NCBI RefSeq assembly: GCF_017347095.1
Contig: NZ_JADPRZ010000001.1
Span: 1-64,000, forward strand
Direction of reading: 5' to 3'
From: Sporosarcina sp. E16_8
GTDB taxonomy: Bacteria; Bacillota; Bacilli; Bacillales_A; Planococcaceae
DNA length: 64,000 bases
The notes beneath the pieces are model-generated. The model was not told the origin of the DNA, did not search any database, and worked only from the letters and a program-made list of their open reading frames with translations. The translations under genes and the position numbers were made by a program. This document shows positions 15,053 to 57,851 of this stretch, piece after piece (positions within the stretch are counted from its first letter, which is position 1; every line of letters starts with the position of its first letter).

Positions 15053-15417
15053 ATTAAGAAAAATATAGCATAGTTTTAAAGCTTTGTCTACTAAGATAAG
15101 GTATCAAAAAGCCCTCATTTTTGGAGGCAATTATCTCCTATAAGCAAACCTTTTCCTCTTATCCCCAATCCAGAATTACTAATGTAACACATTCAAGTAT
15201 GCCTTGTCGGTTATCTGTGTTCTTCGTAGTATACTGAATGCCAAGATGTTATTCTCTCTTAATTGTTCAGCCCTTCCCATTCATCTCGAGTTCGAATGGT
15301 ACTATGGCTTCTGCTGACTTCTGATTGTTCAGCTACCCATCACTGAGTAGGTTACCATGTTGTACTTGGCTTATCAATCAGACATCCCCAGGTAAGAACG
15401 TAGTCTTTCCCTCCACC
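15053..15417. other. Island DNA without an intact gene
   Basis: All frames are broken. A weak hairpin with AAAAAGCCCTC lies near 15106. Nothing else can be supported. Confidence 0.4.
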
Positions 15418-32195: not shown

Positions 32196-32256
32196 TGGGC
32201 CTGCCGGATGCAGGTCATGCAGTCATTGCGACAGGACGTCGCGCACGTAGACTGCC
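32196..32256 (-). ncRNA. Twin-hairpin element, copy 1 (Bacillaceae-1-like)
   Basis: Hairpin 1: CCTGC (32200-32204), loop CGGAT, GCAGG. Hairpin 2: GCGAC (32228-32232), loop AGGAC, GTCGC, on a basal stem GCAGTC/GACTGC. Stems differ from the other copies in compensating pairs while loops keep GGA. Read on the minus strand the loops are ATCCG and GTCCT, close to the RUCCU loops of the Bacillaceae-1 RNA motif. On that strand the element lies downstream of hfq. Confidence 0.6.
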
Positions 32257-32283
32257 TTCCTTTTTTACGTCTTATGCCTGCCG

Positions 32284-32345
32284 CGGGCCTACAGGATGTA
32301 GGTCATGCAGCTGTTGCCACAGGAAGTGGCGCACTTAGGCTGCGT
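32284..32345 (-). ncRNA. Twin-hairpin element, copy 2, tandem to copy 1
   Basis: Hairpin 1: CCTAC (32288-32292), loop AGGAT, GTAGG. Hairpin 2: GCCAC (32316-32320), loop AGGAA, GTGGC, on a basal stem GCAGC/GCTGC. Compared with copy 1, stem pairs changed on both sides. It is 30 nt downstream of the hfq stop on the minus strand. Confidence 0.6.
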
Positions 32346-32375
32346 TCATTTGTGACAGGTACCCTCCGCTTTTGC

Positions 32376-34567: not shown

Positions 34568-36391
34568 CTACATCACTCGTTTGAACATTTTTTCAAGTTC
34601 ATATGTCGTGAAATGAATTAGCACCGGTCTACCATGCGGACAAGTAAATGGATTGTCGGCAGCGGATAGATCATTCAACAGCCTTTCCATATCTGCCAGT
34701 GTCAAATGGTGATTGGCTTTGATGGACCGTTTGCAACTCATCATGATGGCGGCTTCTTCACGCAATTTACCGATATCAATTTTCCGTGTTGTCAACACTT
34801 GCTCAATAATATCTTCGATGATAACCGTCTCTTCTCCTGCTGGAAACCAAGATGGATATTCTTTTACCGCATAGGAAGATGGACCAAACTCCTCTAGGAA
34901 GATACCGACTTCCTGCAACAGGCTCATATTTTCCTCAATTTTCGTTTTCTCATCTGCTGAGTAATGGAACATAAGAGGAATCAGTAACATTTGACGTTCT
35001 TCATCATCAGTCACACTCAATTTATCTCTGAAAAACTCATACTTTATTCGTTCTTGGGCTGCGTGCTGATCAATCATGAAGAAACCATCTTCATTTTGCG
35101 CAACAATATAGGTGCCATGAACCTGTCCAACTGGCTCTAGAGCTGGAAATTTTTTATCAACTTCTGATTGTTCAGCTTCGTCTAGAGCAATCTGTGGTTC
35201 ATTGACCGTCCAAGGCGTTTGTTCAACGGGGTCATTTTCAGGGAGATCATACGGCACGTACTCAGGTTTTTCTAGTGGTGTCATTGACGGCGCTGTCACG
35301 GGTGTTGGTCTTTCGGTTCGGAATTGATTCCACATATTTACTTGTTCAGACTGATTTTTCTTGGCAGGTTCTTTTTTAATAGCATCTGGAACGATTGTGT
35401 TTTTCCGGATCGCTTTCTGGACGGATTCTTTAATTAACGCCAGCAACTCGCCTTCTTTGCTCATGCGGATATGTTGTTTGGAAGGATGCACGTTGACGTC
35501 TGTCAAATAAGGGTCCCCTTCAATGTTAATAACCGTAATTGGAGATCGTCCAATCGGCAAATACGTATGGAATGCATCTAGAATTGCGTGATTGATTGCA
35601 TTGCTCTTTACCCATCTACCATTGACGATTAACGTCATATAATTCCTTGACGCACGCGTCATTTCAGGTAGTGTCACATGGCCTGAAACGCTGTAATCCG
35701 CATTCTCTCCCGCGAAGCTCACCATTTTACGGGCGACAGCTATGCCGTATATATCTGATAGTACTCGGCGTTGATCTCCGCTTCCCGCTGTCTGTAATAG
35801 CACTTGACTGTAATGAGAGAGTTTAAATGCTATCGCGGGATGACTGAGCGCAAGTCGATTGACGAGATCGATTGTATGGCCCAGTTCTGTTTGGATTGTT
35901 TTCATGTATTTTAGGCGTGCTGGCGTATTGAAAAACAATTGAGAAACAGTAATATCCGTTCCTTTGCGGAATGCCGCATTATCGTGTTTGACAAGTCTGC
36001 CTCCGTCAATTTGTACTTCTGTGCCTTCTGTTTCACCGTCGGAAGTCCACATAATTATCTTGGACACGGATGCGATACTCGCAAGTGCTTCTCCTCGGAA
36101 ACCGAGCGTGCGAATTCGGAACAGATCATGGTCATTGGAAATCTTGCTCGTTGCATGCCGCTCAAACGCTTGAACAGCATCTTTTTTAGACATTCCATTG
36201 CCGTTATCTGTTACACGAATTGTCAGCAGACCGGCTTCCTCAAGCCCAATTTCAATTACGGTACTTTCTGCATCAATCGCATTTTCAACAAGCTCTTTAA
36301 CGATGGAAGCAGGACGTTCGACGACTTCGCCCGCAGCGATTTTATTGGACAGCGTATCGTCCATCACTTTGATGATGTCTATCGGTCTCAC
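34568..36391 (-). CDS. mutL: MutL, DNA mismatch repair endonuclease
   Basis: MutL (607 residues) links MutS mismatch recognition to strand incision. The GHKL ATPase part has LVENAIDAESTVIEIG, DNGNGM, and RTLGFRGEALASIASVSK; the C-terminal endonuclease part has DQHAAQERIKYEF, SCKRSIKANHHL and CPHGRPVLIHF, the metal-binding motifs of nicking MutL proteins. The GTG start overlaps the mutS stop (GTGA), giving the conserved mutSL operon. Confidence 0.96.
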   Translation of the reverse strand: MRPIDIIKVMDDTLSNKIAAGEVVERPASIVKELVENAIDAESTVIEIGLEEAGLLTIRVTDNGNGMSKKDAVQAFERHATSKISNDHDLFRIRTLGFRGEALASIASVSKIIMWTSDGETEGTEVQIDGGRLVKHDNAAFRKGTDITVSQLFFNTPARLKYMKTIQTELGHTIDLVNRLALSHPAIAFKLSHYSQVLLQTAGSGDQRRVLSDIYGIAVARKMVSFAGENADYSVSGHVTLPEMTRASRNYMTLIVNGRWVKSNAINHAILDAFHTYLPIGRSPITVINIEGDPYLTDVNVHPSKQHIRMSKEGELLALIKESVQKAIRKNTIVPDAIKKEPAKKNQSEQVNMWNQFRTERPTPVTAPSMTPLEKPEYVPYDLPENDPVEQTPWTVNEPQIALDEAEQSEVDKKFPALEPVGQVHGTYIVAQNEDGFFMIDQHAAQERIKYEFFRDKLSVTDDEERQMLLIPLMFHYSADEKTKIEENMSLLQEVGIFLEEFGPSSYAVKEYPSWFPAGEETVIIEDIIEQVLTTRKIDIGKLREEAAIMMSCKRSIKANHHLTLADMERLLNDLSAADNPFTCPHGRPVLIHFTTYELEKMFKRVM

Positions 36392-38955
36392 CCTTTCTTA
36401 GGTCTGAGCTTTTCTTTCAATTCATGGATGTATTGCAGTGCCTGGAACGGTGTCATATTTAGTAGATCTGCATCGTTCAGGTCAGTCAGCACTTCTTGCT
36501 CTTCTGTAGACAGGGAAACCTGTCCTTCATTTTGAATATCGAAAAAGTTCAACTGCATAGGTTCATCTTCACGAACCGTTTGTTTCTCCACATTTTCAAA
36601 TGTAGTGAGTAATGTTTTTGCTCGGTTGAGAAGCGATTCAGGTAGACCTGCAAGATCCGCAACGTAAATCCCGTAACTTTTATCAGCTGGCCCCGTCATG
36701 ACTTTATGGAGAAAGACGACTTTTCCATCCTGTTCCATTGCAGCGACATGAACATTTTCAAGTCGAGATAGTTCTTTATCCAAATTGGTCAGTTCATGAT
36801 AATGGGTAGAAAACAGTGTATTCGCTCCGATTTCATTGTGAATATGCTCCATCATCGCCTGCGCTAAAGCCATGCCATCATAAGTTGAAGTCCCACGCCC
36901 GATTTCATCAAAAAGGAGAAGACTTTGCGCAGTTGCATTTGCGATCGCGAATTGAGATTCCATCATTTCCATCATAAATGTACTTTGTCCTGAAGCTAGG
37001 TCATCCGCAGCACCAATTCTTGTGAATATTTGATCGGTAACTGGAAGTAACGCCTGATCGCAAGGAACGTAGCAACCAATCTGCGCCATCACAACAATGA
37101 GCGCAATTTGCCGCATATACGTACTTTTACCGGACATATTGGGTCCCGTGATAAGCAACATATTCGCTTCGTCAGTCAATTTGCAGTTATTAGGAACGTA
37201 AAGAGAATGGTCAATCATCTTTTCAACGACCGGATGACGACCGTTCTTGATTTCCAATGCTTTCCCATCGTGAAATACGGGTTTGACGTAGTTACGCTTT
37301 TCCGAAACTGCTGCGAATGAAAGAAGGACATCCAGTTCGCTTAGGACACTTGCAAGATGCTGGATATTACGGATATGTGTTTTCATGGAATCTCGGACCT
37401 TGCTGAATAATTTATACTCAAGCTCTAGCCCTTCCGCTTCCGCATTGAGGATAAGGTCTTCTTTCTCTTTTAGCTCAGGCGTTATGTAACGTTCAGCATT
37501 CGCAAGCGTCTGCTTTCTCTCATATCGTTCCAAATCCGCAAGATGGATATTGGACTTCGTAATCTCTATATAATAGCCGAATATTCTGTTGTACCCTATT
37601 TTTAACGATTTAATGCCTGTTCGCTCGCGCTCCTCACGTTCAAGTTCTGCAAGCCACGCCTTACCATTTTTTGAAGCATCACGGTATTGGTCAAGTTTTG
37701 CATCATAGCCATCCTTGATGATACCGCCTTCTTTAACGGATAGTGGCGGATTTTCAGCAATTGCTAGTTCAAGAATTTGTAGTGCTTCTTCGCAACCATT
37801 AATCCGCTCAGAAAATTGATTCAGCAGCGGGCGTTCTGATTCATGGAGTGCTTTTTTGATAGTTGGAACACGACGGAGTGAGTTACGAAGTTGTGCAAGA
37901 TCCCTTCCACTCGCGCTACCCATCGAAATTCGCCCAGCAAGTCGCTCTAAATCGTACACTTCTTTCAAGCTTGTCTTCAATTCATCCCGCAGGAAAAATT
38001 CTTCTATCAGCTCAGTCACTGCATCAAGACGGTTTTCAATTGCTTTTTTTTCGGCTAATGGCTGATGAATCCACATTTTTAATTTACGTGCGCCCATCGC
38101 TGTAACCGTCTCGTCAAGCAACCAGTAAAGCGTACCATCCTTGCTACCGTTGCGGATTGATTGAATGAGTTCCAAATTACGCATGGAATTGGCATCAATG
38201 GATAGCTTCGTTTGTTTCTGAATGAATTCGAATGGACGTATATGATCGAGTGCCGTTTTCTGCGTGCGCTTTACGTAGGATACAAGCATGCTACATGCTT
38301 CTCTGACATCCGTTGGAATTGCACCAAAAAGATCTTCCGTTTCGAACTGTTCTTCGCCATATTCGATGGACAATACAATACTGCGTTTCGCCATGCTGTC
38401 ACTAAGAGCGAGATGCAGCCTTTCATCGACAACGACCTCTTTCATACCCAGTGCCTCAATCTCAGCAATTAGCGTCCGCTCATCGCCTTCCACACACTCT
38501 ACTTTGCCCTCACCAGTTGCTAGGTCAAGATAAGCGAGCGCATACTTGTTGCCATCTATACTATCAGCAGAACCGATGAAATGATTCGTATTCGCATCAA
38601 TTGTTTTTCCCTCCGTCATCGTACCCGGGGTAATGATTTTAACGACTTCCCTTTTGACGATACCCTTCGCTTCTTTTGGATCTTCTGTCTGTTCACAAAT
38701 AGCCACTTTATGCCCTTTACGTACGAGCGTTTCAATATAACCCGCAGCGGCATGATAAGGTACACCACACATCGGAATCCGCTCACGATTTGCAGCATCC
38801 CGACTGGTTAATGTAATTTCAAGAATTTGAGATGCTTCTTCCGCATCCGCGAAAAACAATTCATAGAAATCGCCTAATCTAAAAAACAGAAATGCATCTT
38901 CATGCTCTGATTTTACTTTTAAATATTGTTGAATCATTGGTGTATGTGTTGTCAT
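36388..38955 (-). CDS. mutS: MutS, DNA mismatch recognition ATPase
   Basis: The 855-residue protein has the mismatch-binding domain with FFRLGDFYELFFADAEEAS (the phenylalanine-x-glutamate wedge), the core and clamp domains, Walker A in LLITGPNMSGKSTYMRQIAL, and the ABC-type LLFDEIGRGTSTYDGMALA and STHYHELTNL. I chose ATG 38955 (MTTHTPMIQQYLKV), 7 nt after AAAGAGG; the longer frame adds 34 residues without family match. Upstream is the structured repeat array at 38999. Confidence 0.96.
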   Translation of the reverse strand: MTTHTPMIQQYLKVKSEHEDAFLFFRLGDFYELFFADAEEASQILEITLTSRDAANRERIPMCGVPYHAAAGYIETLVRKGHKVAICEQTEDPKEAKGIVKREVVKIITPGTMTEGKTIDANTNHFIGSADSIDGNKYALAYLDLATGEGKVECVEGDERTLIAEIEALGMKEVVVDERLHLALSDSMAKRSIVLSIEYGEEQFETEDLFGAIPTDVREACSMLVSYVKRTQKTALDHIRPFEFIQKQTKLSIDANSMRNLELIQSIRNGSKDGTLYWLLDETVTAMGARKLKMWIHQPLAEKKAIENRLDAVTELIEEFFLRDELKTSLKEVYDLERLAGRISMGSASGRDLAQLRNSLRRVPTIKKALHESERPLLNQFSERINGCEEALQILELAIAENPPLSVKEGGIIKDGYDAKLDQYRDASKNGKAWLAELEREERERTGIKSLKIGYNRIFGYYIEITKSNIHLADLERYERKQTLANAERYITPELKEKEDLILNAEAEGLELEYKLFSKVRDSMKTHIRNIQHLASVLSELDVLLSFAAVSEKRNYVKPVFHDGKALEIKNGRHPVVEKMIDHSLYVPNNCKLTDEANMLLITGPNMSGKSTYMRQIALIVVMAQIGCYVPCDQALLPVTDQIFTRIGAADDLASGQSTFMMEMMESQFAIANATAQSLLLFDEIGRGTSTYDGMALAQAMMEHIHNEIGANTLFSTHYHELTNLDKELSRLENVHVAAMEQDGKVVFLHKVMTGPADKSYGIYVADLAGLPESLLNRAKTLLTTFENVEKQTVREDEPMQLNFFDIQNEGQVSLSTEEQEVLTDLNDADLLNMTPFQALQYIHELKEKLRPKKG

Positions 38956-38998
38956 TTTTTTAACCTCTTTACGTTTACTGTTTTTTATTATTATACCA

Positions 38999-39273
38999 AA
39001 GTTGGGCCACGAAGAGCCCAACTTCTGTGTGATTTTTGCGGGCTGTGCGAAAATCACAACAAAATCGGACTACGAAGGGTCCGATTTCTGCGTGATTTTT
39101 GCGGGCTTCAAAAATCTAAGCAAATACCGGACAACGAAGAGTCCGGTATTTGTGTAATTTACACGGGCTGTGTGGAAATTACAACAAAGTTGGGCCACGA
39201 AGGGTCCGATTTCTGTGTGATTTTTGCGGGCTTCAAAAATCTAAGCAAAGTTGGGCCACGAAGAGCCCAACTT
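38999..39273. repeat. Five-unit array of alternating hairpins with compensating stem changes
   Basis: Units of about 62 bp start at 38999, 39062, 39122, 39187 and 39248. Each has hairpin A, a 9-11-bp stem around an 8-nt loop ACGAAG (A stems: AAGTTGGGC/GCCCAACTT in units 1 and 5, AAATCGGAC/GTCCGATTT in 2, AAATACCGGAC/GTCCGGTATTT in 3; unit 4 mixes arms 1 and 2 and pairs through three G-T wobbles). Units 1-4 also have hairpin B around CGGGCT with stems GTGATTTT/AAAATCAC, GATTTTTG/CAAAAATC, GTAATTT/AAATTAC and again GATTTTTG. Loops are kept while stems covary. Confidence 0.9.
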
Positions 39274-39280
39274 CTGTGTA

Positions 39281-39500
39281 ATTGCAACTCCACGATTTTA
39301 ATTGCAACTTCACTGCTCTAATTGCAACTTTACCATTCTAATTGCAACTCCACCGCTCTAATTGCAACTTTACCGTTCTAATTGCAACTCCAGATTTTCA
39401 GTCAAAACGCCGGACATTAAAAGGTGTGTAATCGCAACTTCGAAAACCTAATCACAACTCCACCACTCTAATCTCAACTGCACATCTATCATCACAAACT
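39281..39500. repeat. 20-bp tandem repeats upstream of mutS
   Basis: ATTGCAACT-N(11) recurs exactly every 20 bp at 39281, 39301, 39321, 39341, 39361 and 39381. A second, in-phase group with ATCRCAACT follows at 39431, 39451, 39471 and 39491. The array runs straight on from the hairpin array, whose last unit switches into it. Confidence 0.9.
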
Positions 39501-39547
39501 TCAGCTATGAAGCTTAGTAAGCGTACTCTCACAAAATTCAAGTAACT

Positions 39548-39575
39548 AAAAAAAAGCCGGTGGTGTTTGCCGGCT
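39548..39575 (-). terminator. cotE terminator
   Basis: On the minus strand AGCCGG and CCGGCT arms around a 9-nt loop are followed by seven or more T, 2 nt after the cotE stop codon. Confidence 0.85.
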
Positions 39576-39576
39576 C

Positions 39577-40170
39577 TCAAAATGACGATGATTCGTTTGG
39601 TGATTTATGATTTTGTCCTTGACCTTGTTCATTGCCCCGCACTTGCGCTTGTTCACGTCCTGGACCGTGCCCCTGTTCATGGGATGATGATTCATCTGAA
39701 AACTTCCATTCCTCTTCAAAACTTTGCGGATGTACCGTAATACAGACTTTTGTTTCGCCAACAACTTCAGCCATCAACTCTCGTTCAATCGTTATGCAGA
39801 ACTTCTCACCACATTCCGATATAATCGCCTCTGTACAATTCGGGTGCTGTACAACATCAACGATGACTTCTTCATGCCCAGATGTCGGCTCGTCTCGATA
39901 ATGCAAACGAATCCTGTCCTTGTAAGGAATTGACTCCGTAAATACAGATGTCTTTGAATGTTCTTGATGGGAATACCAAACATTGACGTCGAACTTACCG
40001 GTAACTTCGATGAATTTACCGACCTTTTTCGCCTGATGTGTATGGTTGATGACCCAACATCCGAGTATACTCGTCGGACTATTCGGCGGCTTCAGTGTCA
40101 CAGTCGTCTCAGTCCGCTTCTTCCCCTTGGCAATAACCGTCTTCGTCACGATCTGACGTAAATTTTTCAG
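39577..40170 (-). CDS. cotE: CotE, outer spore coat morphogenetic protein (probable CTG start)
   Basis: CotE is needed to build the outer spore coat. The conserved core has SPTSILGCWVINHTHQAKKV, GKFDVNVWYSHQEHSKT, VVQHPNCTEAIIS and MAEVVGETKVCITVHP; the C-terminal 45 residues are a low-complexity tail rich in Glu, Gln, Gly and Ser. The frame has no ATG before MTKTVIAKG (GTG 40149), which lacks a ribosome binding site, whereas GGAGGAGG lies 7 nt before CTG 40170. Starting there gives (M)KNLRQIVTKTVIAKGKK, which aligns with the first residues of B. subtilis CotE. About 197 residues. Confidence 0.88.
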   Translation of the reverse strand: MKNLRQIVTKTVIAKGKKRTETTVTLKPPNSPTSILGCWVINHTHQAKKVGKFIEVTGKFDVNVWYSHQEHSKTSVFTESIPYKDRIRLHYRDEPTSGHEEVIVDVVQHPNCTEAIISECGEKFCITIERELMAEVVGETKVCITVHPQSFEEEWKFSDESSSHEQGHGPGREQAQVRGNEQGQGQNHKSPNESSSF

Positions 40171-42295: not shown

Positions 42296-42360
42296 TTGGG
42301 CCAACAGGATGTTAAGGATACTCAGACGTCGCCGCAGGACGCGGTAGTTTCAGTCTGAGT
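42296..42360 (-). ncRNA. Twin-hairpin element, copy 3, in the miaB leader
   Basis: Hairpin 1: CAAC, loop AGGAT, GTT with an outer CC/GG. Hairpin 2: GCCGC (42331-42335), loop AGGAC, GCGGT, on a perfect 8-bp basal stem ACTCAGAC/GTCTGAGT. On the minus strand both loops read RUCCU (ATCCT and GTCCT). It lies between the miaB promoter candidate and the miaB start, so it would be in the mRNA leader. Confidence 0.65.
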
Positions 42361-42416
42361 TCCCCTAATCGGCAGGGAATTTGCGCCCCACTGAGTAAAG
42401 TTGAACGTATGATTTC

Positions 42417-57730: not shown

Positions 57731-57790
57731 TGTGCCTGCTGGACGCAGGTATGCAACCTTTTCCGCAGGACGCGGCGTTCTTAGTCTGAG
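57731..57790 (-). ncRNA. Twin-hairpin element, copy 4, upstream of the ABC ATPase
   Basis: Hairpin 1: CCTGC (57735-57739), loop TGGAC, GCAGG. Hairpin 2: CCGC (57763-57766), loop AGGAC, GCGG. The right flank TTAGTCTGAG matches that of copy 3, but the left basal arm is changed (ATGCAAC), so the basal stem is lost here. It lies between bmp copy 1 and nupO on the minus strand. Confidence 0.55.
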
Positions 57791-57851
57791 ATAAATTAAC
57801 ACAAGAAAAAAGTCCTTGCACGGTATGTTTTCCTCTATTAATTTAAATGGA

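What the first reader, a model, noticed from the sequence alone, without database searches (positions are those of the whole stretch)
38999..39273. Array of alternating hairpins whose stems covary while loops stay fixed
Five units of about 62 bp each carry hairpin A with loop ACGAAG, and four carry hairpin B with loop CGGGCT. Stem sequences differ between units but pairing is kept by changes on both sides (AAGTTGGGC, AAATCGGAC and AAATACCGGAC with their exact complements). Unit 4 combines arms of two types and still pairs through G-T wobbles. Such within-array covariation means the fold, as RNA or as cruciform DNA, has been selected. It lies between the cotE terminator and mutS, so it could be in a long mutSL leader or be a mobile hairpin repeat.
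Basis: seen in the sequence. Interest (0 to 1): 0.7.

Follow-up and report, generated by a model that had tools for sequence, protein, structure and literature searches.

The report
Nesting two-hairpin repeat of Sporosarcina
Next to the predicted promoter of a DNA-repair gene, this bacterium carries a row of a two-hairpin repeat that a model search matched up to 90 times in one Sporosarcina genome and in none of 193 other genomes of the same family, whose hairpins are kept by matched changes in both arms, and which likely spreads as mobile DNA that settles inside other repeats.

Summary
In detail: five A and four B hairpins lie at 38999-39273. They are a tandem row of a ~62-bp two-hairpin unit. 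A covariance model finds the unit in 66 of 68 genomes of the genus (E <= 0.01), with 72-90 matches in three of them, and in 0 of 193 other genomes of the family. In 215 distinct copies aligned by sequence alone, core arms are Watson-Crick paired in 97% (A) and 94% (B) of cells, although stems differ.

By loose motifs 183 of 238 copies lie inside other repeats; two alignments put the unit in a hairpin loop of the Bacillaceae-1 RNA. A 227-bp repeat carrying the unit is missing at the same site in five relatives. In five genomes 104 of 133 places point against the replication fork.

Best reading: non-autonomous mobile double-hairpin DNA, behaving like REPs and mitochondrial double-hairpin elements but not shown to belong to either; its enzyme is unknown. 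The mutSL-leader idea is not supported: a conserved extended -10 box lies between array and mutS. An RNA role and any effect on mutS are untested.

The parts
38999..39024 (+). Unit 1, hairpin A (loop 39008-39015)
39026..39061 (+). Unit 1, hairpin B
39062..39087 (+). Unit 2, hairpin A
39089..39122 (+). Unit 2, hairpin B
39122..39151 (+). Unit 3, hairpin A (11-bp stem)
39151..39186 (+). Unit 3, hairpin B
39187..39212 (+). Unit 4, hairpin A, chimera: left arm as units 1/5, right arm as unit 2, three G-T wobbles
39214..39247 (+). Unit 4, hairpin B, like that of unit 2
39248..39273 (+). Unit 5, hairpin A only; B is missing and 20-bp repeats follow
38990..38998 (-). Predicted extended -10 box of mutS (TGGTATAAT)
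   Evidence: TGnTATA(A/C)T in 33 of 36 cotE-mutS loci; not listed by the two-hexamer scan; start site not measured
36388..38955 (-). mutS, ATG at 38955-38953
   Evidence: ORF ending at 36388 with this ATG; relatives start alike
39546..39580 (-). Terminator-like hairpin and T-run after cotE
   Evidence: read from the sequence; not listed by the scan
39577..40149 (-). cotE

Best explanation
The array is a head-to-tail row of a ~60-base two-hairpin repeat that is scattered through Sporosarcina genomes, keeps its stems by matched changes in both arms, and likely belongs to non-autonomous mobile DNA that is predicted to be copied as a folded single strand at the replication fork. Shown: dispersal, no match in 193 other genomes of the family, a fixed A loop with changing stems, nesting inside other repeats, one site where a repeat carrying the unit is present here and absent in five relatives, and an orientation that follows the replication fork in five genomes. 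Inferred: that an enzyme acting in trans recognises the fixed loop; that the folding strand is single-stranded DNA and not RNA; that the row grew by unequal crossing-over or slippage, which would also have made the chimeric unit 4. At mutS the array takes the place of the sequence just upstream of the predicted -10 box; an effect on mutS is untested.
For: Dispersal: 66 of 68 genomes of the genus at E <= 0.01, 0 of 193 others in the family at E <= 0.001, 87, 90 and 72 matches in three genomes. Covariation in a sequence-only alignment of 215 distinct copies; structure against slid controls on 20 copies, 95.6% against 28-45% paired. Nesting: full-length Bacillaceae-1 matches spanning the unit in 4 of 6 loci; five copies of the large host repeat without the unit. 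Orthologous empty site in five relatives. Fork orientation 104 of 133 places, and 13 of the 16 units of one genome that are not between two leading-strand genes (p 0.02). Further tandem groups in two other genomes.
Against: No mobilising enzyme is linked to the unit: no unit in 32 Y1-transposase loci, and PF01797 is undetected in 17 of 68 genomes, among them unit-rich ones. The empty site shows movement (or loss) of a composite repeat, not of the bare unit. No target-site duplication was evident at that one site. Hairpin B has 77 G-U against 8 A-C cells, which fits RNA as well as single-stranded DNA. The folding strand lies opposite to the strand exposed as lagging-strand template, so the simple IS200/IS605 picture would need the other strand to be the active one. 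Three A hairpins read as terminator-like on the - strand. Two of five genomes are not significant alone for orientation.
Confidence: 0.57

Rival explanations
1. The unit is a functional structured RNA (a protein-binding or mRNA-stabilising hairpin pair), selected after transcription, and the array is a multi-copy binding platform.
For: G-U cells exceed A-C cells 77 to 8 in hairpin B; one loop is fixed while stems change; REP literature reads G-T pairs the same way (PMC3733652, passages).
Against: Hairpin A shows no strand preference (11 G-U, 13 A-C). The strand that would fold is opposite to both flanking genes in 46 of 80 intergenic copies and on the same strand as both in 10. A predicted promoter separates the array from mutS. 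Copies lie inside other repeats and follow the fork. No transcript data were available.
Confidence: 0.2
2. The array is a DNA regulatory element of mutS: hairpins or cruciforms against the extended -10 box tune repair-gene expression.
For: Units touch the predicted mutS -10 box in the window clade and in L073 and L086; on the MutS tree presence needs three changes, two of them forced.
Against: Most loci examined have the box without the unit, the sister species S. limicola lacks it, and the unit occurs at many unrelated places. The tree count includes L074, a degenerate hairpin judged by eye.
Confidence: 0.1
3. The unit is a REP moved by a TnpA-REP (Y1) transposase of this genus.
For: Short intergenic palindromes with subfamilies of complementary stem changes, fork-linked orientation, PF01797 proteins in 51 of 68 genomes.
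Against: GT[AG]G lies near hairpin A in 13 of 238 copies and, on the other strand, near the B end in 4 of 221; CGTC or its complement in 1 of 238 and 1 of 221. No unit in 32 Y1 loci. Unit-rich genomes without a detected Y1 gene.
Confidence: 0.08

Closest known systems
REP / REPIN elements with TnpA-REP (RAYT), PMC3733652 and PMC6006769 (passages read)
   Same: Short palindromes in tens of copies, mostly intergenic, subfamilies with alternative complementary stems, G-T pairs, tandem clusters; lagging-strand link documented for the related IS200/IS605 elements
   Different: Two unlike hairpins per unit, fixed C-G-N-A-G loop, no GTAG/GTGG or CGTC foot as a rule, no Y1 gene next to units in 32 loci, nesting in other repeats
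Mitochondrial double-hairpin elements (Paquin et al. 2000, seen only as a reference in PMC5910586; features otherwise recalled) and sponge hairpin elements (PMC2800124, passages)
   Same: Small mobile hairpin units, double hairpins, insertion without flanking duplications reported for Allomyces in PMC2800124
   Different: Organelle genomes of eukaryotes; no sequence relation tested
bcr1 of the Bacillus cereus group and double-hairpin families Efa-1 and Pae-1 (PMC2267715, passages)
   Same: Lineage-specific structured intergenic repeats; bcr1 reported with mobile character (title of a cited paper), Efa-1 and Pae-1 with two adjacent stem-loops
   Different: No fixed-loop, changing-stem pattern, nesting or fork orientation in the passages seen; sequences were not compared
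Bacillaceae-1 RNA (RF01690)
   Same: Dispersed two-hairpin element in the same genomes (four in the window); spans the unit in 4 of 6 loci scanned
   Different: The array itself does not match it

Membership tests
REP / REPIN | GT[AG]G (or CGTC) foot at one end of the palindrome | tested here: not met
   GT[AG]G in 13 of 238 near A and 4 of 221 near the B end; CGTC/GACG in 1 of 238 and 1 of 221
REP / REPIN | Copies flank a Y1 (RAYT) gene | tested here: not met
   No match at E <= 1 in 32 PF01797 loci with about 1-1.5 kb flanks; not every PF01797 gene was examined
REP / REPIN | Short palindrome, intergenic, many copies | tested here: met
   80 of 97 copies overlap no ORF of 100 aa or more; up to 90 matches
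IS200/IS605-type single-strand transposition | Orientation follows the replication fork | tested here: met
   104 of 133 places in five of 18 single-contig genomes
IS200/IS605-type single-strand transposition | Y1 transposase available in trans | tested here: inconclusive
   51 of 68 genomes, but undetected in unit-rich G054, G009, G057, G035 and G020
Mitochondrial-type double-hairpin element | Two adjacent hairpins kept while stem sequences change | tested here: met
Mitochondrial-type double-hairpin element | Mobility of the unit itself | tested here: inconclusive
   Composite carrier absent at the orthologous site in five relatives; host repeats with and without the unit
Mitochondrial-type double-hairpin element | Resides in organelle DNA | tested here: not met
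   Bacterial chromosomes
MITE | Terminal inverted repeats and target-site duplication | tested here: inconclusive
   Looked at in one site only, on the composite; no clear duplication seen
Known Rfam RNA family | Match at or above gathering score | tested here: not met
   No match over the array; best is TD-2 at 30.8 bits against a gathering score of 48.7
mutSL leader RNA | Lies between transcription start and mutS | tested here: not met
   Conserved extended -10 between array and mutS; by sequence only

The most novel reading that the evidence does not exclude
A bacterial counterpart of mitochondrial double-hairpin elements: a 60-nt hairpin pair without a gene of its own that moves at replication forks by an enzyme other than Y1 transposases and invades the loops of other folded repeats, so that genomes build nested hairpin trees from interchangeable modules; its fixed C-G-N-A-G loop is the recognition mark.
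Probability: 0.28. Interest if true: 0.8.

Novelty: new variant of a known kind. Interest (0 to 1): 0.6.

Why it matters
One large class of bacterial palindromes (GTAG REPs) is tied to a Y1 transposase. This family shows neither the GTAG/CGTC foot nor a neighbouring Y1 gene in the copies and loci tested, yet it reaches about 90 matches in a genome, keeps its fold through compensating changes, nests inside other structured repeats, including a hairpin loop of an element that Rfam lists as a small RNA, and follows the replication fork. With 66 genomes carrying it, how hairpin repeats move, and whether DNA or RNA is the folded form, becomes testable in laboratory strains. It also warns that covariation alone does not prove an RNA gene.

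Tried and rejected
Rejected: a mutSL leader (predicted promoter lies between); a known Rfam family (the weak matches are all below gathering score); REP membership; 'the unit always sits in an apical loop of its host': the two Bacillaceae-1 alignments shown place it in a hairpin loop, but in five empty copies of the large host repeat the insertion point was in no apical loop on either strand.

Led nowhere or corrected: the pattern was wrongly drawn and replaced; the pair counts were off by one column and redone; of nine rows that labelled EMPTY, three hold a unit with a changed loop and one is another module, leaving five; one search assumed the origin at position 1, which one search showed wrong for four of five genomes, and one search replaced it; the order-level search held the same 261 genomes as the family, so nothing outside the family was tested; the two-hexamer promoter scan did not list the -10 box; literature searches with Sporosarcina and repeat terms listed nothing relevant, which covers only the held library. 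In one search, 11 of 39 MutS rows were dropped because the script found no full frame, L073 among them.

Full report
Observation. A hairpins lie at 38999-39024, 39062-39087, 39122-39151, 39187-39212 and 39248-39273; B hairpins at 39026-39061, 39089-39122, 39151-39186 and 39214-39247. On both strands 0 of 100 shuffles fold as well. Unit 4 is a chimera: its left arm is that of units 1 and 5, its right arm and B hairpin are like those of unit 2, and the mixed stem pairs through three G-T wobbles on the + strand. Recombination within the array is the simplest explanation (inference).

Relatives at the same place. Related arrays sit beside mutS in G037 (86% identical), G035, G020 and G036, with remains in G021 and G022. 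The genus is taken as Sporosarcina because contigs of G037, G036, G021 and G041 have the same lengths as named Sporosarcina records. In named cotE loci the model reports units in the spacer of L069, L070, L071, L073 (ACRSM) and L086; S. limicola (L072), sister of the window's clade, has none. On a MutS tree of 28 rows, six of them scored as having a unit, the label needs three changes, two of them forced by well-supported branches. One of the six, L074, is only a degenerate hairpin judged by eye that the model did not report. The spacer also collects other repeats: the large host repeat in L081 and ~20-bp tandem repeats in L082.

Promoter. In 33 of 36 cotE-mutS loci TGnTATA(A/C)T stands 43-51 nt before the TPMI/TPMM codon of mutS. 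In the window the box is 38998-38990 on the minus strand and touches the foot of the first A hairpin. The array is therefore predicted to lie upstream of the mutS start site. The two-hexamer scan did not list this box, nor the cotE terminator; it did list three A hairpins as terminator-like on the minus strand, against 0.7 expected, so transcription stopping there is possible and untested.

A genus-wide family. Twenty copies were aligned (A1) and a covariance model R1 was built. These copies had been picked with a loop-and-arms scan that required pairing, so alone is biased. R1 matches 66 of 68 genomes of the genus at E <= 0.01 and 65 of 261 family genomes at E <= 0.001, all 65 in this genus, hence 0 of 193 outside it; that run scored 20 candidates per genome with stricter filters. 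Deeper searches gave 87, 90 and 72 matches and 54, 18, 26, 30 and 19. The window's own genome gave 13, while a strict loop pattern gave eight, five of them in the array; inside arrays the model also reports shadow matches on the other strand, so match counts slightly exceed copy counts. Tandem groups occur elsewhere: G026 at 987980-988169 and 3299231-3299433, and G051:C3 at 218330-218779.

Covariation. With a profile of sequence only (nhmmer), 391 hits in the window and 388 loci reduce to 243 distinct near-full places and 215 distinct sequences. The six core pairs of A were 1237 Watson-Crick, 11 G-U, 13 A-C and 19 other, with 10 gapped cells set aside; the eight core pairs of B were 1588, 77, 8 and 13, with 34 gapped (smaller set). 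Left core arms include TCGAAC 130, GCGAAC 32, CCGAAC 13, TTGGGC 8, TCGGAC 6 and CCGGAC 5. Many of the loci had been fetched through R1, best matches first (in G054 all 54 listed matches), which favours paired copies. It does not by itself explain why G-U exceeds A-C in B but not in A, since both hairpins passed the same filter.

Loop. In the A loop C13, A16 and G17 are each kept in 213 of 215, position 14 is G in 203, position 15 varies (A 197, T 7, G 6, C 4) and position 12 is a purine in 213. C-GNA-G is the pattern of very stable DNA mini-hairpins; this is recalled, and one search gave only a listing of papers. It hints at DNA and proves nothing.

Nesting. By loose motif classes 238 copies fall into: large host repeat 86, Bacillaceae-1-like 61, three further repeat contexts 19, 14 and 3, tandem array 8, unclassified 47; some of the unclassified plainly resemble the classes. 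The three bases before the unit are GCC in 127 and GCG in 45. In 4 of 6 loci scanned a full-length Bacillaceae-1 match spans the unit; the two alignments shown place 70 and 65 nt in one hairpin loop. The window's four Bacillaceae-1 copies have no insert. Five copies of the large repeat read AGCC-TCC or similar where filled ones read AGCC-unit-TCC.

Movement. A 1.8-kb stretch around one copy of the window's genome (L036) was searched in ten relatives. In G037, G020, G035, G021 and G022 the flanks meet within 2 to 12 bases and a 227-bp repeat holding the unit is missing; the other five match with larger gaps, all shorter than in the window's genome. So a composite that carries the unit was gained here, or lost elsewhere. 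Movement of the bare unit is inferred from hosts with and without it.

Orientation. Five of 18 single-contig genomes were examined, chosen so that the match list stayed complete. With dnaA as origin and the terminus taken as opposite, 104 of 133 places (same-strand copies within 2 kb merged) have the A-to-B strand against the fork (p = 4e-11): 15 of 17, 41 of 52, 16 of 23, 19 of 23 and 13 of 18; the third and fifth are not significant alone. In G054, 30 of 38 units between two leading-strand genes are anti-fork, and so are 13 of the other 16 (p 0.02), so gene direction is not the sole cause. Genes there are plain ORFs of at least 100 aa. Copies in one host repeat family are not independent.

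Enzyme. PF01797 proteins occur in 51 of 68 genomes but were not detected in G054, G009, G057, G035 or G020, which had 54, 42, 23, 21 and 17 unit matches. No unit lies in the 32 Y1 loci examined. The mobiliser is unknown.

Reading. The array is a local tandem expansion of a dispersed, likely mobile hairpin pair. It behaves like REPs, bcr1 and mitochondrial double-hairpin elements, and fails the REP tests made here. RNA function is the main rival, because hairpin B clearly favours one strand. Of the papers cited I read passages found by terms, not whole texts; the others were seen as listings only.

Noticed in passing
32200-32354, 42301-42369, 57735-57800: Four Bacillaceae-1 RNA matches on the minus strand. 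On the complementary strand the hairpin loops of the first two read CAGGATG/CAGGACG-like, resembling CsrA-binding loops (recalled); the Rfam strand or function may deserve a second look.
   Followed up: no
39279-39490: A ~20-bp tandem repeat (TAATTGCAACT...) follows the array directly; the same motif flanks units in G037 (L019, L023).
   Followed up: partly
L044, L050, L052, L185: The large host repeat holds a further hairpin with the same ACGAAGA loop and another stem (AAAGCCGT / ACGGCTTT); in L050, L052 and L185 it lies on the strand opposite to the unit.
   Followed up: no
L086: A record named Arthrobacter beigongshangensis REN13 encodes Sporosarcina-like CotE (67% identity) and MutS; probably a mislabelled assembly.
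   Followed up: no
L025:1490-1560: In G037 another unit also abuts a TTGGTATACT-like box on its antisense strand, as at mutS; units may favour such promoters or supply their upstream edge.
   Followed up: no
15270-15354: Group II intron domain match (RF01998, 75.9 bits) on the minus strand.
   Followed up: no
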